In this document: positions 8,689 through 44,562 of the stretch, piece after piece
Numbering within the stretch: position 1 is the stretch's first letter
Layout of the letters: each line of letters begins with the position of its first letter
IMG/VR virus record: IMGVR_UViG_3300037882_003529
Span: 1-64,000 of that record
From: a virus
Length of the DNA: 64,000 bases
Strand: one strand, 5' to 3'
Made by a program: the position numbers and the translations under genes
The notes under the pieces: generated by a model
Seen by the model: only the letters and a program-made list of their open reading frames with translations
Told to the model about the DNA's origin: nothing
Database searches by the model: none

Positions 8689-8715
8689 ATTATATCAACA
8701 CAGGAAAACTTTCAA
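8689..8715 (-). promoter_or_regulatory. Probable promoter of gp32
   Basis: Minus-strand TTGAAA (8715-8710) and TGATATAAT (TATAAT at 8694-8689), spacer 15 bp. It differs from the GTTTAC early promoters and lies inside the very end of the upstream gene region, about 65 bp before the gp32 start. Confidence 0.6.
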
Positions 8716-9182
8716 GGTAAGAGAAATCCTTTCTTTGGATCAATTTTCATAAAGTATTTCTGCTGGTGAGGAAAAAATTGATTCATGTCGTCAATAATCA
8801 GATAACTTTCAGTCGGATTCTTCTTGAAATAATCTTCAATTTCAATTCCTCGTAAAGTATATGGAGAAATAAGTCCATCATATCCTGCAACACCGGTAAT
8901 ACCAACAATATTGATTGGTTCGCGTGTATACAAAGCAAACATCTTTTTGAATGCTTCGACATTATGTTCTAAACGCCAAGTCGATGAAATAACGATTCTG
9001 TAATTTTCAAATCGACTTAAGAATTCAACGAACTGATAGACATTATGAGGACACCAATTTACTCCATTGATCGTTGGTTCACCTTCAAAAAATCCACCAT
9101 ATCCATATTCTTGACCCCAAACCTCGTTATTAAGAACTCCGTCGATGTCTAAAAATATCGTAATTTCTTCAGTAATTTTCAT
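8712..9182 (-). CDS. HAD-like hydrolase of the RNA-repair (Swiss Army knife) type
   Basis: 156 residues. HAD phosphatase motif I (FLDIDGVLNNE, residues 10-20), motif II Ser/Thr (VISSTWR, about 84-90) and a motif IV acid pair (LIIDDMN, about 131-137) are present. The short cap and SSTWR signature resemble the HAD domain found in Swiss-Army-knife RNA repair proteins, which remove phosphates from RNA ends. It overlaps the next gene by four bases. With the RNA ligase at 43606 it could serve tRNA repair; the link is inferred. Confidence 0.75.
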   Translation of the reverse strand: MKITEEITIFLDIDGVLNNEVWGQEYGYGGFFEGEPTINGVNWCPHNVYQFVEFLSRFENYRIVISSTWRLEHNVEAFKKMFALYTREPINIVGITGVAGYDGLISPYTLRGIEIEDYFKKNPTESYLIIDDMNQFFPHQQKYFMKIDPKKGFLLP

Positions 9183-12346: not shown

Positions 12347-13624
12347 TTACCGAGTTCGAGTTGAATCAAACACTAATACACATGAATTCGCAGGAATCTT
12401 TCGGTTCACTGAAGTGGACTGAATAAACACTTGCCATTGACCGTGTTCGCCTGGTTTCATTTTGATTCGACCAGAAGGAAGACCTAATCGTTGTCGAGCC
12501 GTTGAACCACCAAATACCTTACCAGTACGAGGATCACGAATTGCAATTTGCTTGGTTTCGTGAACTACTTGTTCGCTCTTCACTAATTCGTAGAAAGCAT
12601 TGCCAACAATATAAGGCTTTTTAGTTTCTTGTTCGACCAATCTTCGAATTTCTTGTTCAGCATTCGAATTCAAAATTCGATATTCGGTAATTTCGTGTAG
12701 ATTTTCTTTTGCCTTTTCTACACTAACATCTTCAAGGTCGATTCCAAAATAGTTTGAACTTCTTGTGCCTCCAGCAGATAAAGTAGCAGTACGAGCATAT
12801 TGACTTCTTACTGTTACTGCTGAAGCTGTTTGCAAACCTTCAACTGAAGTAGCATCCCAAACTTTAACATTTCCAGGTTCAATTCCATATGCGCTTTGAA
12901 TGCCTCTTTTAACTCGTTCATCAGGAACCAAAAAAGCAACCGTCAAATTATTTGGACAGTTTCTCATTAAAGTTCTAAATTGCTGAACGTGCGTAAGTCC
13001 TGAAGAGTTTTCTTCTCCGTCGGTCAACACCAAAATCATTTGAATATCATTATTCTTGATTTTCTCATATGCTTCTACAATTGCTCGAAGCATAGGCGTG
13101 CTTCCTGAAGGACTATAATCCTTCATAGCCTCTACAACACCATCAGCGTCTAATTGATCTCTAAAACACAAATCAGATTTATAAAGATCAGGAGTAACAA
13201 CGTGAGCAAAAGACTTGTAGTAACCACCAAATCGCATGATTCCGTAAGTTTGATCAATATTTGCTGAAGCTAAGGAAACCGAAGCGTCTTTCATTTCAGC
13301 AATAGTTCTCTCAATAATTCTTGGAACATGTCGTCCTAAACCAGACATAGAGCCAGATTCATCGATAGCCAAAATGACTGAGCTTGTTTTACGGACTGGC
13401 GGTGGAGATTTGGCTTTTTTCTTCGGAGTTGCTTGAACTTTGAACACTTTAGCCACTGGTTTTTTCGCAGCTAATTTTGGTTTGATAGTAACACTTGCTT
13501 TAGAAACTCGATATTTGTATGCAGTTGTTTCTGAGCAGTTATTTCGAGCTGCGATTTGGCGGGCACTGAATTTGCCTGAATTCCAGTCAGCTTGAATTTG
13601 TTGAATTGAGAATGCCATGTTCAT
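12347..13624 (-). CDS. VWA-domain protein with N-terminal HTH
   Basis: 425 residues. Residues 5-45 resemble a small helix-turn-helix (SARQIAARNNCSETTAYKY). A Lys/Pro linker leads to a von Willebrand A domain with a MIDAS motif (AIDESGSMSG, about residue 87; later TPML and LVLTDGEENSS), implying divalent-metal-dependent protein binding. The C-terminal part (about 300-425) is unassigned. Second ATG two codons in is an equally good start. A second VWA protein lies at 34778-35698. Role unknown. Confidence 0.85.
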   Translation of the reverse strand: MNMAFSIQQIQADWNSGKFSARQIAARNNCSETTAYKYRVSKASVTIKPKLAAKKPVAKVFKVQATPKKKAKSPPPVRKTSSVILAIDESGSMSGLGRHVPRIIERTIAEMKDASVSLASANIDQTYGIMRFGGYYKSFAHVVTPDLYKSDLCFRDQLDADGVVEAMKDYSPSGSTPMLRAIVEAYEKIKNNDIQMILVLTDGEENSSGLTHVQQFRTLMRNCPNNLTVAFLVPDERVKRGIQSAYGIEPGNVKVWDATSVEGLQTASAVTVRSQYARTATLSAGGTRSSNYFGIDLEDVSVEKAKENLHEITEYRILNSNAEQEIRRLVEQETKKPYIVGNAFYELVKSEQVVHETKQIAIRDPRTGKVFGGSTARQRLGLPSGRIKMKPGEHGQWQVFIQSTSVNRKIPANSCVLVFDSTRTR

Positions 13625-15032: not shown

Positions 15033-15779
15033 TTAAAGATTCGACATCAGCATCATAAAACCGCATGCATTAATCGTATTGATCTCGACGATTTTGATGC
15101 CGTCAGGAGTATCGCAAACATCAAGACAGTAGGCTTCATGAGGCGACCAATTAAAAGGTGCTATGACATAGTTAACGAAACTATCAAATCGTTTATCAAT
15201 GAATTTTCTGCATGAAATTAATTTAGAACCACGACGATACATCGACTTGGCTGCAATTCTATTTCTTACGATCCAATATCGATATTCAGAATAGATTGTT
15301 TTGGGATTAGACACTTGAATCATAGTGTCCATTAATCGATATCCGTAATCTTCTTTAAGATCGACTACAGAATGTCGCCATTTCGCAAACTCTTCAGGTG
15401 TAATTAATTTGCCTCCAAACAGTTTAGAGTCTTCAATCGGCCTGATGAACTTAAGACTATCGACAACAGCATCTTGAAATTTGCAAACGACCGAATCAGA
15501 ATTCAACAACAAATCTGACCAATGTTTCATTTGTTCAACAAAGGTGATTGGTCCTAAATCGTAGACACCAGGAGACCAATTCTTTTGTTTAGCTACATGT
15601 CTCATTGAGTATGAACCAAGACATATAACCGGACCTTCAGGGTTGATGTCTGGCAATATCTCGCCAACAAATGGAATAACTTTGTGGAGTGAATAAGGAA
15701 TGTTATGCTTCTCAAACACTTTAATACAGTCATCAAATACTGGTTCTTTTGATATGTTATTTTGGACAACCCAATGCAT
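15033..15779 (-). CDS. R2K-type ATP-grasp domain protein
   Basis: 248 residues. The layout (ICLGSYSMRHVAK near 52; SEYRYWIVRNRIAAKSMYRRG near 163; CLDVCDTPDGIKIVEINTINACG near 218) fits the short ATP-grasp family found in phages (R2K clade, DUF4343), where E/N near the C-terminus bind Mg-ATP. Such enzymes ligate a carboxylate to an amine; the substrate is unknown. A second member is at 25618-26274. Confidence 0.75.
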   Translation of the reverse strand: MHWVVQNNISKEPVFDDCIKVFEKHNIPYSLHKVIPFVGEILPDINPEGPVICLGSYSMRHVAKQKNWSPGVYDLGPITFVEQMKHWSDLLLNSDSVVCKFQDAVVDSLKFIRPIEDSKLFGGKLITPEEFAKWRHSVVDLKEDYGYRLMDTMIQVSNPKTIYSEYRYWIVRNRIAAKSMYRRGSKLISCRKFIDKRFDSFVNYVIAPFNWSPHEAYCLDVCDTPDGIKIVEINTINACGFMMLMSNL

Positions 15780-16510: not shown

Positions 16511-16603
16511 TTGAAGAGGAAAAAACAAATTCAGCGTCCGCTATGAATGGTTTCCCATTCTTAGGAATTGAACCTAAGTAACTGAATTTTACGCCATCTT
16601 CAA
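16511..16603 (-). ncRNA. Two-helix hairpin element E1 with reduced permuted tRNA-like insert
   Basis: Minus-strand RNA with outer helix TTGAAGA/TCTTCAA, internal loop TGGCGTA opposite GTTTTTTCC, inner helix AAATTCAG/CTGAATTT, then ACTT. The apical part holds a T arm (TTAGG-TTCAATT-CCTAA) directly followed by a stem GAATGG-GAAA-CCATTC and TA, the order expected of a permuted tRNA that has lost its D and anticodon arms. One of seven related elements in the array. Confidence 0.65.
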
Positions 16604-17292: not shown

Positions 17293-17363
17293 TGGCAGAC
17301 TAGGTGAGAATCGAACTCACTCTCGGTGGGTCAAAGCCACGTCGGATCCCTGATCTCTAGCCA
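17293..17363 (-). tRNA. tRNA-Gln (UUG)
   Basis: Anticodon loop CTTTGAC (UUG) on a GTGG/CCAC stem, T arm GTGAG-TTCGATT-CTCAC, encoded CCA with G discriminator. The first base (U1) does not pair with U72, in line with the weak 1-72 pair preferred by GlnRS. The D arm is unusually short (total about 71 nt). Confidence 0.75.
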
Positions 17364-17373
17364 ATTGAAAAGG

Positions 17374-17509
17374 TTTCAACGGAAAATTGAATTCAGTATT
17401 TTTCGGGTTTTGCCATTAAACTACGATTCCATAGAATGCGGAATCGGGTGGAGTCGAACCACCATCACGTCATTAACAGTGAAGGAACTGAAATCTGCAC
17501 CAGTTGAAA
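17374..17509 (-). ncRNA. Element E2: circularly permuted tRNA-Asn-like RNA
   Basis: Outer helix TTTCAAC/GTTGAAA, loop TGGTGCA opposite AATTTTCC, inner helix GATTTCAGT/ACTGAATTC (one mismatch), then CCTTC. Along the RNA the order is anticodon loop CTGTTAA (GUU, complement at 17473-17479), T arm GGTGG-TTCGACT-CCACC, acceptor 3' strand CGATTCC, a nine-base linker, acceptor 5' strand GGAATCG, TA, D arm GTTTAATGGCAAAAC. The two acceptor strands pair over all 7 bp. So the 3' half precedes the 5' half. A normal tRNA-Asn lies next to it at 17513. Confidence 0.75.
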
Positions 17510-18449: not shown

Positions 18450-18475
18450 CGTCCTAGCCACTAGACTACAGGTGC
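18450..18475 (-). pseudogene. Truncated tRNA-Glu-like 5' half
   Basis: Minus-strand GCACCTG, TA and a complete D arm (GTCTAGTGGCTAGGAC) of tRNA-Glu type, which stops just where the anticodon arm should begin; the endonuclease gene follows. Its acceptor strand differs from the intact tRNA-Glu, so it is not a simple duplicate of it. Probably the part of the tRNA gene left upstream of an endonuclease insertion. Confidence 0.6.
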
Positions 18476-18484
18476 AAAAATGAA

Positions 18485-18783
18485 TAAGTTGATATAGTGT
18501 GCTGTTACGCTTAAGTCTCTACGGATCTTGCATTGCATTAGCAGAACGGGTTTGTACACACCCTATGGCCCTTCGTCTTTTACCACTGCTTTAAGTAACA
18601 GGCTTCGCCCAAATACGTTCAACCTCAAGTTTTGAATTCTGAAACCCGAATAGTCGATAACAATGCAAACTGTACTTGTCCTTCTCCGTCGAACACCTTC
18701 CGAAAGGTTGACTAATCTCTCGGTTCGTCGATTTGACACTCATTAAAGATGGCTGCTTCTAAGCCTACTTCTACATCAACTTA
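18485..18783 (-). ncRNA. RNA mimicking the 23S rRNA GTPase-associated centre (L11 site)
   Basis: About 299 nt closed by a helix AAGTTGAT/ATCAACTT. The 5' part (complement of 18741-18768) contains GGCTTAGAAGCAGCCATC, identical over 18 nt to the bacterial 23S rRNA sequence near E. coli 1062-1079. The 3' part (complement of 18488-18513) has AAGCGTAACAGC-ACACT, matching AAGCGTAATAGC-TCACT near 1089-1106. Together with the closing helix this is the complete 58-nt domain that binds L11 and elongation-factor GTPases, with about 230 nt inserted where helix 44 begins. No open frame. Comparison is with the rRNA sequence as I know it. Confidence 0.8.
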
Positions 18784-19863: not shown

Positions 19864-19938
19864 TGGCAGGTCATAGAGGATTCGAACCTCTGCCGCAAGG
19901 TTTTGGAGACCTGCATGCTGCCGTTACACTAACGACCT
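19864..19938 (-). tRNA. tRNA-Trp (CCA)
   Basis: Canonical order: acceptor AGGTCGT/ATGACCT, anticodon AGGT-CTCCAAA-ACCT (CCA), T arm AGAGG-TTCGAAT-CCTCT, G73 and CCA encoded. Compare the permuted Trp-like element at 21632-21767. Confidence 0.92.
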
Positions 19939-20446: not shown

Positions 20447-20563
20447 TGGCGCTTCTCGATGGATTCTAACCACCGTTCTCCTATTCAGAGTTTAAGCTCT
20501 ACAAGGCGCATTTGCTGACACTAATAAGGCGACCGCCAGTCAGACTACAAAATGCTAAGAAGC
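20447..20563 (-). tRNA. Oversized tRNA-like gene, Leu(UAA)-like
   Basis: Acceptor GCTTCTT/GAGAAGC and encoded CCA. The D-arm region is replaced by a long extension of about 50 nt: GCATTT/AAATGC enclosing CTGAC/GTCAG and GGCG/CGCC. The anticodon stem TAGAG/CTCTG closes a six-base loop CTTAAA (UAA if read normally). T loop TTAGAAT has A for C56, as at 20026. A functional tRNA is doubtful; it may be a structured derivative. Confidence 0.5.
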
Positions 20564-20568
20564 AAAAA

Positions 20569-20705
20569 TGGTGTCTCTCTAAGGATTTAAACCTTAGATT
20601 TCTTCCTTTCGGGGAAGCGTCGTTAATCAAACACTGCGGCTAGCACCGCTGCTTGAGAACTTGCTAGAATTCTCATATTTGATTTTAATCATTGGACCAA
20701 GAGAC
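20569..20705 (-). tRNA. Oversized tRNA-like gene, Ser(GCU)-like
   Basis: About 137 nt with acceptor GTCTCT/AGAGAC, T arm CTAAGG-TTTAAAT-CCTTAG, and CCA. A GCGG/CCGC stem closes loop TGCTAG (GCU, six bases). The D-arm side carries two extra hairpins (TGATT/AATCA and GAGAA/TTCTC) and the variable side a CTTCC/GGAAG hairpin. A normal Ser(GCU) gene follows at 20710. Probably a tRNA-derived RNA rather than a standard tRNA. Confidence 0.5.
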
Positions 20706-20889: not shown

Positions 20890-20978
20890 TCTCGAAAGAA
20901 TAAATGAATTCAAAGGACAGTCCAATAGGCGGACCGTATCAGTCTCAATGAAGTATTTGAACTCTACACTATTCGAGA
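20890..20978 (-). ncRNA. Two-helix hairpin element E3
   Basis: Outer helix TCTCGAA/TTCGAGA, loop TAGTGTA opposite ATTTATTCT, inner helix GAGTTCAAA/TTTGAATTC, then TACTTC. The apical part contains a 7-bp stem with a seven-base loop (ACGGTCC-GCCTATT-GGACTGT), which looks like an acceptor stem closed on itself, without T or D arm. Family member, see E2 and E7. Confidence 0.65.
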
Positions 20979-21079: not shown

Positions 21080-21147
21080 TAAGGAAGGAAAAAATGAACT
21101 CAGAGTTTTTCTCACATTGAAGTATCTGAATTCTACGCCATTCCTTA
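21080..21147 (-). ncRNA. Two-helix hairpin element E4 (minimal)
   Basis: Outer helix TAAGGAA/TTCCTTA, loop TGGCGTA opposite ATTTTTTCC, inner helix GAATTCAGA/TCTGAGTTC, apical loop TACTTCAATGTGAGAAAAAC. No tRNA part. The cleanest example of the shared core (68 nt). Confidence 0.7.
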
Positions 21148-21413: not shown

Positions 21414-21483
21414 TCTTAGAGGAAAAATTGATTTCGGATTGGCACTTTTCAAAAGAAGTAACCGAAATCTTCACCATCTAAGA
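21414..21483 (-). ncRNA. Two-helix hairpin element E5 (minimal)
   Basis: Outer helix TCTTAGA/TCTAAGA, loop TGGTGAA opposite AATTTTTCC, inner helix GATTTCGG/CCGAAATC, apical loop beginning TTACTTC. No tRNA part. Helix sequences differ from E4 but pairing is kept. Confidence 0.65.
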
Positions 21484-21623: not shown

Positions 21624-21631
21624 TAAAAAGT

Positions 21632-21767
21632 TGAAGAGGAATTATGCGAATCCAAAATCTTGGAGCCCTGGTTCTACCGTTAAACTACAAGTCTATTCAG
21701 ACTCGGAGGGATTCGAACCACTCATTGAGGGCTTGGAATGAAGTATTTGAATTCTACGCCATCTTCA
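21632..21767 (-). ncRNA. Element E7: circularly permuted tRNA-Trp-like RNA
   Basis: Outer helix TGAAGA/TCTTCA, loop TGGCGTA opposite GCATAATTCC, inner helix GAATTCAAA/TTTGGATTC, then TACTTC. Along the RNA: TTCCAAG-CCCT (3' side of a Trp anticodon arm), T arm GAGTGG-TTCGAAT-CCCTC (bulged T), acceptor 3' strand CGAGTCT, a four-base loop GAAT, acceptor 5' strand AGACTTG, TA, D arm GTTTAACGGTAGAAC, AGGG-CTCCAAG (5' side of the anticodon arm). The acceptor pairs over 7 bp, AGGG pairs with CCCT, and the anticodon CCA appears on both sides of the break. First element of the array transcript. Confidence 0.8.
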
Positions 21768-21821
21768 CCCAAATACACTCGAAAATTTATTTGGGTGAAG
21801 ATTCCCTAAAGGGAATCTTCA
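21766..21821. other. Two inverted repeats at the array leader
   Basis: TCACCCAAATA pairs with TATTTGGGTGA (21766-21799) and GAAGATTCCC with GGGAATCTTC (about 21798-21820). They lie between the array promoter and the first element. Either could be a processing stem or an attenuator. Confidence 0.5.
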
Positions 21822-25603: not shown

Positions 25604-25632
25604 ATTATAACACGATTCTACCGAAAGTAAAC
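25604..25632 (-). promoter_or_regulatory. T4-type early promoter
   Basis: Minus-strand GTTTACTTTCG (GTTTAC at 25632-25627), 17-bp spacer, TGTTATAAT (TATAAT at 25609-25604). It begins inside the C-terminal codons of the ATP-grasp gene upstream. Confidence 0.85.
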
Positions 25633-26274
25633 AATTTCTTTCCATCGAGTTTCGAGCATTTGGGCATATAGTTTTGAGTCCATTCCTTTATAGAATCCTA
25701 AAGCCCAAGCATCAGTAAGCTCTACAATCGCTAAACCAACTCCCTCGATCCAACCTACGTCAATTGCATAAGCCGAAGGTTTATTTTTCCAAGCTTCGAT
25801 GACTTGTTGACAGAAGGATTCTATTTCATTTTTAGAAATATCTTCTTCGTCTAAATCATCATATCGACCCATGCCAAGAATGCTATTGCCTTGACAATAA
25901 ACTCGCCATTCTTGAGAAAAGTTAACTACGTCAGAATAGATGTACTTCTGGTCGTAGAATTTGCATCGTTTTGCTATGTGTGTATCGAATGCCTTATAAA
26001 CCCATGGCTTAAAGAAATACTTTTTAGGCGACCATGGATCAAAACCAGCAGGTAAACCCCAATGAACCACTCCGACATTTCTTTTGTAAAATGTCGAATG
26101 ATCTAAACCGACACCTAAACCTAAAGGCTCTGGAATTTGAATTTGATTCTTATCCCAAATTCCTTTAATCCATTTGATAGAACCTACATGAAGCGGAAGA
26201 GTTTCTTGTCGAATAGGCTCAAATGCAAAAGTTTCAATTGTGCCATAACCAGGTTCAATTACAGCTTTAATCAT
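25618..26274 (-). CDS. R2K-type ATP-grasp domain protein
   Basis: 218 residues. The pattern SQEWRVYCQGNSILGMGRYDD (about 119-139) followed by AYAIDVGWIEGVGLAIVELTDAWALGFY (about 168-195) matches the phage ATP-grasp (DUF4343/R2K) family; E and D residues in VELTD would hold Mg-ATP. Substrate unknown. Second member in the window after 15033. Its last codons overlap the early promoter for the next operon. Confidence 0.8.
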   Translation of the reverse strand: MIKAVIEPGYGTIETFAFEPIRQETLPLHVGSIKWIKGIWDKNQIQIPEPLGLGVGLDHSTFYKRNVGVVHWGLPAGFDPWSPKKYFFKPWVYKAFDTHIAKRCKFYDQKYIYSDVVNFSQEWRVYCQGNSILGMGRYDDLDEEDISKNEIESFCQQVIEAWKNKPSAYAIDVGWIEGVGLAIVELTDAWALGFYKGMDSKLYAQMLETRWKEIVYFR

Positions 26275-29761: not shown

Positions 29762-30382
29762 TTACATGTAGTTGTCGACAAGTTCTTGTTCAGTCATGAT
29801 TCTAAATTCTACTTTTTGGCGCCAAAAATCAGCTGCTCTAATAACTGCTTGATGATCAGTTTCGCCACCTTTCACATCACAAATTACAAAAGGATTTCCA
29901 TTCTCTATTCCATAGACAGTTCTTGTAGGAGAGCTCAAGAATAATGGATCGCAAATCTCAAGAGTTTTATTCGTATTATAAAGATAGAGAGTCGTATTAA
30001 TTTTACTAAAAGCTTTCAGGATTTCTTTACGAACTTCATGATATCGAAGTTTTCCTAGACCGCAACCAAGAGCTGGAATTGCAATACTTTGAATTCCCAT
30101 AAACTCTACTTTGTCTCTAAGAGAAACTAAACCTTTTTTGATCCATATAATGCTCGAAGACGATTCCCAATGATTCTTTGTAGGAAAATTAAAAATCAAC
30201 TTTGAATCAAAGAAAGAATGGACAACACCCATATACAGTTGATTTTCTAAACAGAATTTTCGATAGCTATGATAATTTTTAGGAAATCGTTCTTTGAATT
30301 CTTTTGCTAATCCTGCTCCTGAGACTCCTTTGCAATTCACAGGATTTACTAAAGCTTCTGCTGGTGATTCAAATATGCTCAT
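29762..30382 (-). CDS. DarG-like macro domain protein
   Basis: 206 residues. The macro-domain signature is clear: ALVNPVNCKGVSGAGLAKEFKERFP (about 9-33), then SIAIPALGCGLGKLRYHEV (about 92-110). This form is close to the DarG/TARG1-type macro domain, which removes ADP-ribose from DNA or proteins and neutralises the DarT toxin. The C-terminal 70 residues are a separate unassigned region. It overlaps the topoisomerase B gene by four bases. A counter-defence role against ADP-ribosylating toxins is inferred; see also the NADAR protein at 36980. Confidence 0.85.
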   Translation of the reverse strand: MSIFESPAEALVNPVNCKGVSGAGLAKEFKERFPKNYHSYRKFCLENQLYMGVVHSFFDSKLIFNFPTKNHWESSSSIIWIKKGLVSLRDKVEFMGIQSIAIPALGCGLGKLRYHEVRKEILKAFSKINTTLYLYNTNKTLEICDPLFLSSPTRTVYGIENGNPFVICDVKGGETDHQAVIRAADFWRQKVEFRIMTEQELVDNYM

Positions 30383-43605: not shown

Positions 43606-44562
43606 TTAACCTTTGAAATTTAGAGAAATGACTTTGAATGACCAACTTTGATCTTTAGCCCTAAACACAACACCTTCAGCTTGTTTTCCATTTTTATATC
43701 TTACATTGTCTGCGATATCTCTCAAATCATCAACAGATTCTGGTTTTGGAACATAAACAAAATCAACAAGCGGAAGAGAAGTTTCTTCAGAGAAACGAAG
43801 CAATTCACTCAAAGGTTGTTTTTCCCAAACATTTCTGCGACCTTCAGCTTTCTTTAGAAGAGTAAAAATTTTGATCGATTTTTCACGTAATCCAGATTGA
43901 TTATCATGGATTCCAGGACCAATGATTTCATATTGAATACCAAATCCATCAGGAATCAACTTCTCTAAATTAAACTTTTTAGCCAATTGAGTATAAAAAT
44001 TATCAGCATCTGGCTTTACGGTTAATGTTCGAGAACAAATAGTCAGCTTTCCGTCTTCTTTGAACGCAGTAGAAGAAGTTCCATCTTCTTTCACTGTGAC
44101 ATAATATGGTTCTTCTAATTTCTCGACCCATCTTGGAAACATTTGATAGTTGAGTTCAGAAGTTTTCGAAATGAAATGAGGAAATCCTGCGATGAAATCA
44201 TCGGTATTTTCGATCGATTTCTCGTATTTTGCTACTCGATAAAATCCAGTAAGATCTTCACCGATAAACTTTAATGACTCCTCAATAGATTCCAAAGGAA
44301 TAATCAAGCATTCAGAAGGAGACCCTTTAAATCGACAGAGTTTAATCCGATAAGAGTGCTTTTCCATGAAAGCAAAACGCTGAATTGCAGGCAAAATCGC
44401 ATCTGGAAGAAAAACGGCAACATCATCAAGAAGATTAATCGTTTTTTGAATAACTCCGGTCCAAATTCCTGCTTCGCCACAATCAACTGTCGCTTCTTGA
44501 ATAAAATCAGCGCCTATGATCGATCTAATCGAAACAACCTTTCCTTTTGTAGCTAAAATCAT
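43606..44562 (-). CDS. ATP-dependent RNA ligase (Rnl5/DraRnl-like)
   Basis: 318 residues. Nucleotidyltransferase motifs in order: motif I VKEDGTSSTAF with the adenylated Lys (about residue 157), motif III FGIQYEIIGPG (about 208), motif IV AEGVVFRAK (about 293) and motif V SFKVIS. About 140 residues before motif I fit an N-terminal OB-like domain, as in Deinococcus RNA ligase (342 residues), rather than T4 Rnl1 or Rnl2. It would seal RNA nicks or broken tRNAs. The permuted tRNA-like RNAs in the array would need ligation, so this enzyme is a natural candidate. Ends three bases before the SLOG gene. Confidence 0.85.
   Translation of the reverse strand: MILATKGKVVSIRSIIGADFIQEATVDCGEAGIWTGVIQKTINLLDDVAVFLPDAILPAIQRFAFMEKHSYRIKLCRFKGSPSECLIIPLESIEESLKFIGEDLTGFYRVAKYEKSIENTDDFIAGFPHFISKTSELNYQMFPRWVEKLEEPYYVTVKEDGTSSTAFKEDGKLTICSRTLTVKPDADNFYTQLAKKFNLEKLIPDGFGIQYEIIGPGIHDNQSGLREKSIKIFTLLKKAEGRRNVWEKQPLSELLRFSEETSLPLVDFVYVPKPESVDDLRDIADNVRYKNGKQAEGVVFRAKDQSWSFKVISLNFKG

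What the first reader, a model, noticed from the sequence alone, without database searches (positions are those of the whole stretch)
21632..21767. Circularly permuted tRNA-Trp-like gene in a phage
On the minus strand the T arm and acceptor 3' strand come first, then a 4-base loop, then the acceptor 5' strand, TA and D arm. The 7-bp acceptor (CGAGTCT/AGACTTG) and the anticodon stem (CCCT with AGGG) only pair if the two pieces are joined, and the Trp anticodon CCA sits on both sides of the break. Permuted tRNA genes are known from red and green algae and some archaea; I know of none as an established class in phages. Those cases use a bulge-helix-bulge endonuclease, which bacteria lack, so processing must differ. 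A normal tRNA-Trp is also encoded at 19864, so the permuted copy may have a special role (decoy, nuclease-resistant spare) or be a relic.
Basis: partly seen in the sequence, partly recalled or inferred. Interest (0 to 1): 0.95.

Follow-up and report, generated by a model that had tools for sequence, protein, structure and literature searches.

The report
Phage Y RNA with tRNA-shaped head
The 'back-to-front tRNA gene' is one of seven copies in this phage of a bacterial-type Y RNA, a known small RNA that partners the ring protein Ro60 and carries a circularly permuted tRNA fold; so it is a known kind of molecule in an unusual setting, not a permuted tRNA gene that must be spliced.

Summary
On the minus strand at 21768-21631 the T arm, a 7-bp acceptor hairpin and the D arm follow each other in circularly permuted tRNA order, with Trp-like anticodon-loop sequence on both sides.

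A covariance model built only from RNAs beside Ro60/Rsr (TROVE) genes, none from this window, finds the element end to end (63 bits, E=3e-14) and a second tRNA-shaped copy (81.6 bits, E=5e-19). All seven copies score above 33 bits; the best other match is 21 bits. This makes it a YrlA-type Y RNA. That YrlA is a circularly permuted tRNA mimic is already published from its crystal structure, and Y RNAs are reported in phages.

No splicing or ligation need be invoked. The likely role, inferred, is to tether a Ro60 ring to an enzyme that recognises tRNA shape.

Still unusual: seven dispersed Y RNAs without a TROVE gene in the 68-kb record; a module closest to the phage's own tRNA-Trp; different break points in different Y RNAs; and, in crAss-like phages, normal-order tRNAs with a Y stem in the anticodon loop.

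The parts
21631..21768 (-). E1: YrlA-type Y RNA that contains the reported permuted tRNA-Trp-like module
   Evidence: R1 model 63.0 bits, E=3.2e-14, positions 1-134/134; descriptor hit
21746..21768 (-). E1 5' side of the basal (Ro60-binding type) stem: P1 GTGAAGA, bulged T, GG, CGTA, P2 GAATTCAAA
   Evidence: covarying helices in alignment A2
21740..21745 (-). E1 conserved TACTTC after P2
21728..21738 (-). E1 anticodon-loop remnant TTCCAAG and 3' strand of anticodon stem CCCT
21706..21723 (-). E1 T arm (5 bp with one bulged T, loop TTCGAAT)
21688..21705 (-). E1 acceptor hairpin CGAGTCT-GAAT-AGACTTG
21671..21687 (-). E1 TA + D arm (GTTT AACGGTA GAAC)
21659..21669 (-). E1 5' strand of anticodon stem AGGG and second copy of the loop CTCCAAG
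21631..21656 (-). E1 3' side of basal stem: P2' TTTGGATTC, T-rich linker, CC, P1' TCTTCAA
21490..21623 (-). E2: Y RNA with a tRNA-like insert broken near the acceptor stem; anticodon stem closed by GAAA (CCTAG-GAAA-CTAGG); weak T stem
   Evidence: 33.3 bits, E=1.4e-6; same arrangement in L146 2069
21414..21483 (-). E7: Y RNA stem with short loop, no tRNA module
   Evidence: 50.0 bits, E=7e-11
21080..21147 (-). E3: Y RNA stem with short loop, no tRNA module
   Evidence: 40.3 bits, E=2e-8
20890..20978 (-). E4: Y RNA stem with a simple hairpin insert
   Evidence: 34.3 bits, E=7e-8, filters off; descriptor
17374..17509 (-). E6: second YrlA with permuted tRNA-like module (T arm GGTGG-TTCGACT-CCACC, acceptor CGATTCC/GGAATCG, D arm; Asn-like loop CTGTTAA)
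   Evidence: 81.6 bits, E=4.9e-19
16511..16603 (-). E5: Y RNA stem with a T-arm-like and a second hairpin, no D arm
   Evidence: 41.1 bits, E=1.3e-8
19864..19938 (-). ordinary tRNA-Trp (CCA), closest window relative of the E1 module
   Evidence: 74% identity

Best explanation
Shown: the element is a phage-encoded bacterial-type Y RNA (YrlA clade), one of seven in a tRNA array of a T4-related phage. Its two ends pair into a conserved basal stem, and its loop holds a circularly permuted tRNA fold whose acceptor end is closed by a 4-nt loop and whose anticodon arm is fused to the stem. Inferred: the basal stem binds a Ro60/Rsr ring protein, encoded in the missing part of the genome or by the host. 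The tRNA-shaped module is recognised by an enzyme that sees tRNA elbows, such as PNPase as described for YrlA, or possibly a tRNA repair or tRNA-cleaving enzyme. The RNA thus tethers, gates or decoys that enzyme during infection. It acts as transcribed; it is not cut and ligated into a translating tRNA. Confidence 0.9 is for the identity as a YrlA-type Y RNA; the tethering role is about 0.5.
For: (1) A descriptor from the window stem gives 155 hits in 705 kb (window plus mostly TROVE-bearing loci), nearly all just upstream of TROVE on the same strand, against 47 in 6.4 Mb shuffled. (2) Model R1, from 24 YrlA beside TROVE genes, has 97% of cells paired and 27 of 35 pairs with two-sided changes, 0/500 shuffles. 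In the window it finds E6 (E=5e-19) and E1 (E=3e-14) end to end, and all seven copies at >=33 bits. (3) The same permuted order occurs in 73 Y RNAs, 0.03 expected in shuffles. (4) Loci fetched by RNA pattern alone: 64 of 79 carry a TROVE gene, median distance 974 bases. (5) Literature: YrlA has a paired basal stem binding Rsr plus D, T and acceptor arms binding PNPase (PMC8394870); 6CU1 superposes on tRNA as a circular permutation (PMC11472068).
Against: No TROVE gene in the 68,461-base record, whereas phage Y RNAs normally lie about 1 kb from one; the record is a linear fragment, so this is not decisive. E1's T stem has a bulged T. No expression or binding data. PNPase tethering is extrapolated from the literature. 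I could not compare with the sequences of experimentally verified Y RNAs (papers not held).
Confidence: 0.9

Rival explanations
1. A permuted tRNA-Trp gene: the transcript is cut in both anticodon-loop copies and at the acceptor loop and ligated (a T4-type RNA ligase is encoded at 43606-44562) to give a decoding tRNA.
For: Both halves carry CCAAG; joining them gives the loop CUCCAAG; 74% identity to the phage's tRNA-Trp; an RNA ligase gene is present.
Against: The flanks are the conserved Y RNA stem found in 7 copies, several without any tRNA module. No 3-nt bulge/4-bp helix/3-nt bulge at the junction. The acceptor loop GAAT leaves no CCA. An ordinary tRNA-Trp is encoded. The same order occurs widely in Rsr-linked RNAs of bacteria.
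Confidence: 0.03
2. A relic: a tandem tRNA-Trp pair whose outer halves were deleted.
For: tRNA arrays in phages are dynamic, and the repeated CCAAG on both sides looks like the remains of two copies.
Against: Intact 7-bp acceptor, D stem and anticodon stem; flanking P1/P2 stem is unexplained; a model trained elsewhere fits end to end. As a route of origin of the Y module (capture from a tRNA gene) it may be partly right.
Confidence: 0.04
3. A Y RNA used mainly as a decoy or competitive inhibitor of a host anticodon nuclease, rather than as a tether of a degradation enzyme.
For: E1 displays Trp anticodon sequence; this idea was raised for Salmonella YrlA (PMC7790460); RNA-repair-type genes are present (RNA ligase, HAD_SAK_2).
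Against: The copies without a tRNA module (E3, E4, E7) would not serve; most YrlA keep only half of the anticodon loop. Salmonella YrlA was not cut by the nuclease there, so it is only a candidate inhibitor.
Confidence: 0.2

Closest known systems
Bacterial YrlA Y RNA (Salmonella Typhimurium YrlA, PDB 6CU1, and Rsr-linked relatives)
   Same: Paired basal stem, then T arm, acceptor hairpin and D arm in circularly permuted tRNA order; model match end to end (PMC11472068, PMC8394870).
   Different: E1 keeps a 4-bp anticodon stem and anticodon-loop sequence on both sides, has a bulged T stem, and lies in a phage tRNA array with no TROVE gene in the record.
Phage Y RNAs with phage Rsr (mycobacteriophages; Listeria phage CKA15 candidate; here Caulobacter, Brevundimonas, Xanthomonas, Rhizobium, crAss-like phages)
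   Same: Y RNAs next to or within phage tRNA clusters.
   Different: Those lie about 1 kb from a TROVE gene; here seven copies are spread over 5.3 kb without one.
Circularly permuted tRNA genes of red/green algae and archaea
   Same: Order of tRNA halves is swapped.
   Different: Those use a bulge-helix-bulge junction and yield a decoding tRNA; here there is a long conserved Y stem, no BHB, closed acceptor loop.
tmRNA and split/permuted tmRNA
   Same: tRNA mimic with acceptor and T arm.
   Different: No mRNA-like part, no Ala acceptor; no Rfam tmRNA match to these elements.

Membership tests
YrlA-type Y RNA | 5' and 3' ends pair in a long basal stem with conserved internal loop | tested here: met
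   All seven copies; covariation in A2
YrlA-type Y RNA | Sequence/structure profile of Rsr-linked YrlA | tested here: met
   R1 built without window sequences: E1 63 bits E=3e-14, E6 81.6 bits E=5e-19
YrlA-type Y RNA | tRNA-like domain with D, T and acceptor arms (circularly permuted) | tested here: met
   E1 and E6; E2 in a different permutation; E3, E4, E5, E7 lack a full module
YrlA-type Y RNA | Gene lies near a Ro60/Rsr (TROVE) gene (usual, not strictly required) | tested here: inconclusive
   None in the 68-kb record, which is a fragment; true for the relatives
YrlA-type Y RNA | Binds Rsr; modified by TruB/DusA; tethers PNPase | not testable with these tools
   Needs biochemistry
Circularly permuted tRNA gene | Bulge-helix-bulge at the junction of leader/trailer | tested here: not met
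   Predicted fold shows P2, a large asymmetric loop and the anticodon stem, no 3-4-3 BHB
Circularly permuted tRNA gene | Matures to an aminoacylated decoding tRNA | not testable with these tools
   Needs RNA-seq and charging assay
tmRNA | Match to the tmRNA model | tested here: not met
   No Rfam tmRNA match to the element at E<=1; one 17-nt match at 17304-17320 is below threshold

The most novel reading that the evidence does not exclude
Y RNA tRNA-modules are repeatedly re-captured from tRNA genes and the tRNA/Y-stem chimera can be opened at different points. Break points seen are the anticodon loop (E1, E6 and most YrlA), the acceptor stem (E2, L146), the D loop (L021, L048), or none at all: normal-order tRNAs with the Ro60-type stem in the anticodon loop in crAss001, cr106_1, L008 and L136. 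In phages these RNAs would serve as tRNA decoys or tethers in defence against tRNA cleavage.
Probability: 0.3. Interest if true: 0.65.

Novelty: new member of a known kind. Interest (0 to 1): 0.38.

Why it matters
It removes an apparent paradox (a permuted tRNA gene in a phage without the splicing endonuclease) and adds a T4-related phage with seven Y RNAs in its tRNA array to a little-studied class. It also gives a working search model for Y RNAs, which annotation pipelines call as tRNAs or miss. The modules keep recognisable anticodon loops of many tRNA types, and normal-order versions exist in crAss-like phages. Both make the origin of tRNA mimicry in Y RNAs, and what phages use them for, directly testable.

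Tried and rejected
Rfam at gathering and at E<=1: no family covers the elements apart from a sub-threshold tRNA match to E2. Near or distant DNA match of the locus in INPHARED: none. A TROVE gene in the record: none; the vWA-domain ORF 12347-13624 was considered as a divergent Rsr and rejected: vWA near the N-terminus, hhalign probability 9%, own PHROG family. Integron attC site and self-cleaving ribozyme were considered for the recurring stem and dropped once the TROVE linkage was seen. Relatives of this phage by the 188-aa ORF next to the array: none; by topoisomerase: one distant 153-kb contig without Y RNA or TROVE. A strict script for the D-loop-break class found none at first; a relaxed one found two, so class counts are lower bounds. 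Promoter scan: no excess over chance. L010 from the pattern search looks like a chance match: the descriptor and the model find no Y RNA in it.

Full report
What was claimed and what is there. The reported arrangement is exact. On the minus strand the T arm and the acceptor 3' strand come first, a GAAT loop follows, then the acceptor 5' strand, TA, the D arm and the 5' side of the anticodon stem. CCAAG stands on both sides. ARAGORN and Rfam list 20 or more ordinary tRNAs around it, all on the minus strand, but not this element.

The element is larger than reported. The two ends of the region pair into a long stem: 7 bp (P1), a bulged T, GG with CC, the internal loop CGTA against a T-rich strand, 9 bp (P2), then TACTTC. 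The same stem occurs seven times between 16.5 and 21.8 kb on the minus strand. The stem sequences differ between copies but the pairing is kept. Some copies (E3, E7) have only a short loop, E4 and E5 carry other small hairpins, E1 and E6 carry permuted tRNA-like modules, and E2 a third kind.

Identification. A pattern from the stem (GYGTAGARTTCARNTACTTC) found four IMG/VR contigs. In three of them it lay next to a gene for a TROVE-domain protein, the Ro60/Rsr family. That pointed to bacterial Y RNAs. To test this independently, 67 bacterial TROVE loci and seven phage TROVE loci were fetched by protein. The stem descriptor gave 155 hits in 705 kb, nearly all on the same strand and just upstream of the TROVE gene, against 47 in 6.4 Mb of shuffled sequence.

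Twenty-four of these RNAs with a full tRNA-like module were aligned, and the structure was counted: 97% of cells paired, 27 of 35 pairs with changes on both sides, none of 500 shuffles as high. A covariance model built from them alone was run on the window. It found E6 (81.6 bits, E=5e-19) and E1 (63.0 bits, E=3e-14), both from first to last model position, and all seven stems at 33 bits or more. The next best matches in the window are ordinary tRNAs near 20 bits.

The converse test also holds. Of 79 new viral loci fetched by an RNA pattern alone, 64 contain a TROVE gene, at a median distance of 974 bases from the Y RNA.

The permuted tRNA fold is the known effector module. In bacterial YrlA the insert has the same order as E1: an anticodon-loop remnant, T arm, 7-bp acceptor hairpin closed by 2-15 nt, TAGCTCAG..., D arm. 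A strict classifier finds this order in 73 Y RNAs including E1 and E6, with 0.03 expected from shuffled inserts. Rejoined in tRNA order, 39 of 52 modules are called as tRNAs by ARAGORN; for E1 its anticodon call is TCC rather than CCA, so the Trp label rests on the loop TTCCAAG/CTCCAAG and the similarity to tRNA-Trp. The literature describes YrlA as a basal stem that binds Rsr plus a domain like the D, T and acceptor arms of tRNA, modified by DusA and TruB and bound by PNPase (PMC8394870). Superposition of the crystal structure 6CU1 on tRNAs is a circular permutation (PMC11472068). Y RNAs are reported for mycobacteriophages and suggested for a Listeria phage (PMC12282133), and TROVE proteins for jumbo phages (PMC7824862).

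How it most likely works. Shown: anatomy and family. Inferred from the family: the basal stem binds an Rsr ring and the tRNA-shaped module holds an enzyme that recognises tRNA shape. In this phage that enzyme could be host PNPase or part of a tRNA repair system. The phage encodes a T4-type RNA ligase, a HAD_SAK_2 protein, a Macro-domain protein and R2K ATP-grasp proteins. Nothing requires cutting and ligation. The rejoined E1 is closest to the phage's own tRNA-Trp (74%; the next tRNA scores clearly lower), which suggests capture from a tRNA-Trp gene.

What is unusual here. First, there is no TROVE gene in the 68,461-base record, although phage Y RNAs usually lie about 1 kb from one; the record is a fragment of a T4-related phage, so the gene may lie outside. 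Second, E2 is broken in or near the acceptor stem and its anticodon stem is closed by GAAA; L146 has the same layout, and by eye so does Rhizobium phage RHph_Y65, about 4390-4520 of L083. Third, two bacterial Y RNAs are broken in the D loop. Fourth, in crAss001, cr106_1, L008 and L136 the tRNA is in normal order and the Y stem sits in its anticodon loop; five distinct cases, none in shuffled controls. Across YrlA the anticodon-loop remnants match many tRNA types.

Limits. The 2014 primary paper on YrlA and the 2020 review are not held and the 2018 structure paper was read only through others, so it is not known whether the alternative break points and the normal-order forms have been described. 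Experimental Y RNA sequences were not compared. There are no expression data.

Verdict.

Noticed in passing
L084 6157 and 6397 (crAss001), L082 6690 (cr106_1), L008 minus 4406, L136 13178: Normal-order tRNAs (7-bp acceptor, T arm, D arm) whose anticodon loop is replaced by a Y RNA stem: the inverse circular permutation of YrlA. Not annotated in crAss001.
   Followed up: partly
L081 4766-4840 and L079 4173-4240: INPHARED records annotate tRNA-Ser (phage Kikimora) and tRNA-Gln (CcrColossus) inside YrlA hits of 107 bits: Y RNAs misannotated as tRNAs.
   Followed up: no
L083 3722-4848: Rhizobium phage RHph_Y65 carries at least five unannotated Y RNAs next to its TROVE gene in a tRNA array.
   Followed up: partly
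window 20570-20705 and 20448-20563 (minus): Two odd tRNA-like genes with extra hairpins: one seems to have two hairpins with complementary loops (ctagc/gctag) in place of the anticodon arm, the other an extended D arm.
   Followed up: no
window 21761-21802 (minus): A perfect 15-bp inverted repeat (ATCTTCACCCAAATA/TATTTGGGTGAAGAT) just upstream of E1 includes the 5' strand of P1 and would compete with the Y stem.
   Followed up: partly
window 18470-18780 (minus): About 300 bases between tRNAs without an obvious ORF that look structured; no Rfam match.
   Followed up: no
window 8712-9182, 29762-30382, 43606-44562, 15033-15779, 25618-26274: RNA-repair-type genes in the same phage: HAD_SAK_2, Macro domain, RNA ligase, two R2K ATP-grasp proteins.
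   Followed up: partly
window 12347-13624 (minus): vWA-domain protein of PHROG 26613, unknown function; not a TROVE protein.
   Followed up: yes
L045 3804-3933 (Cellvibrio): Bacterial YrlA with the same Trp-like remnant (TACTTCATTCCAAGCC) as E1.
   Followed up: no
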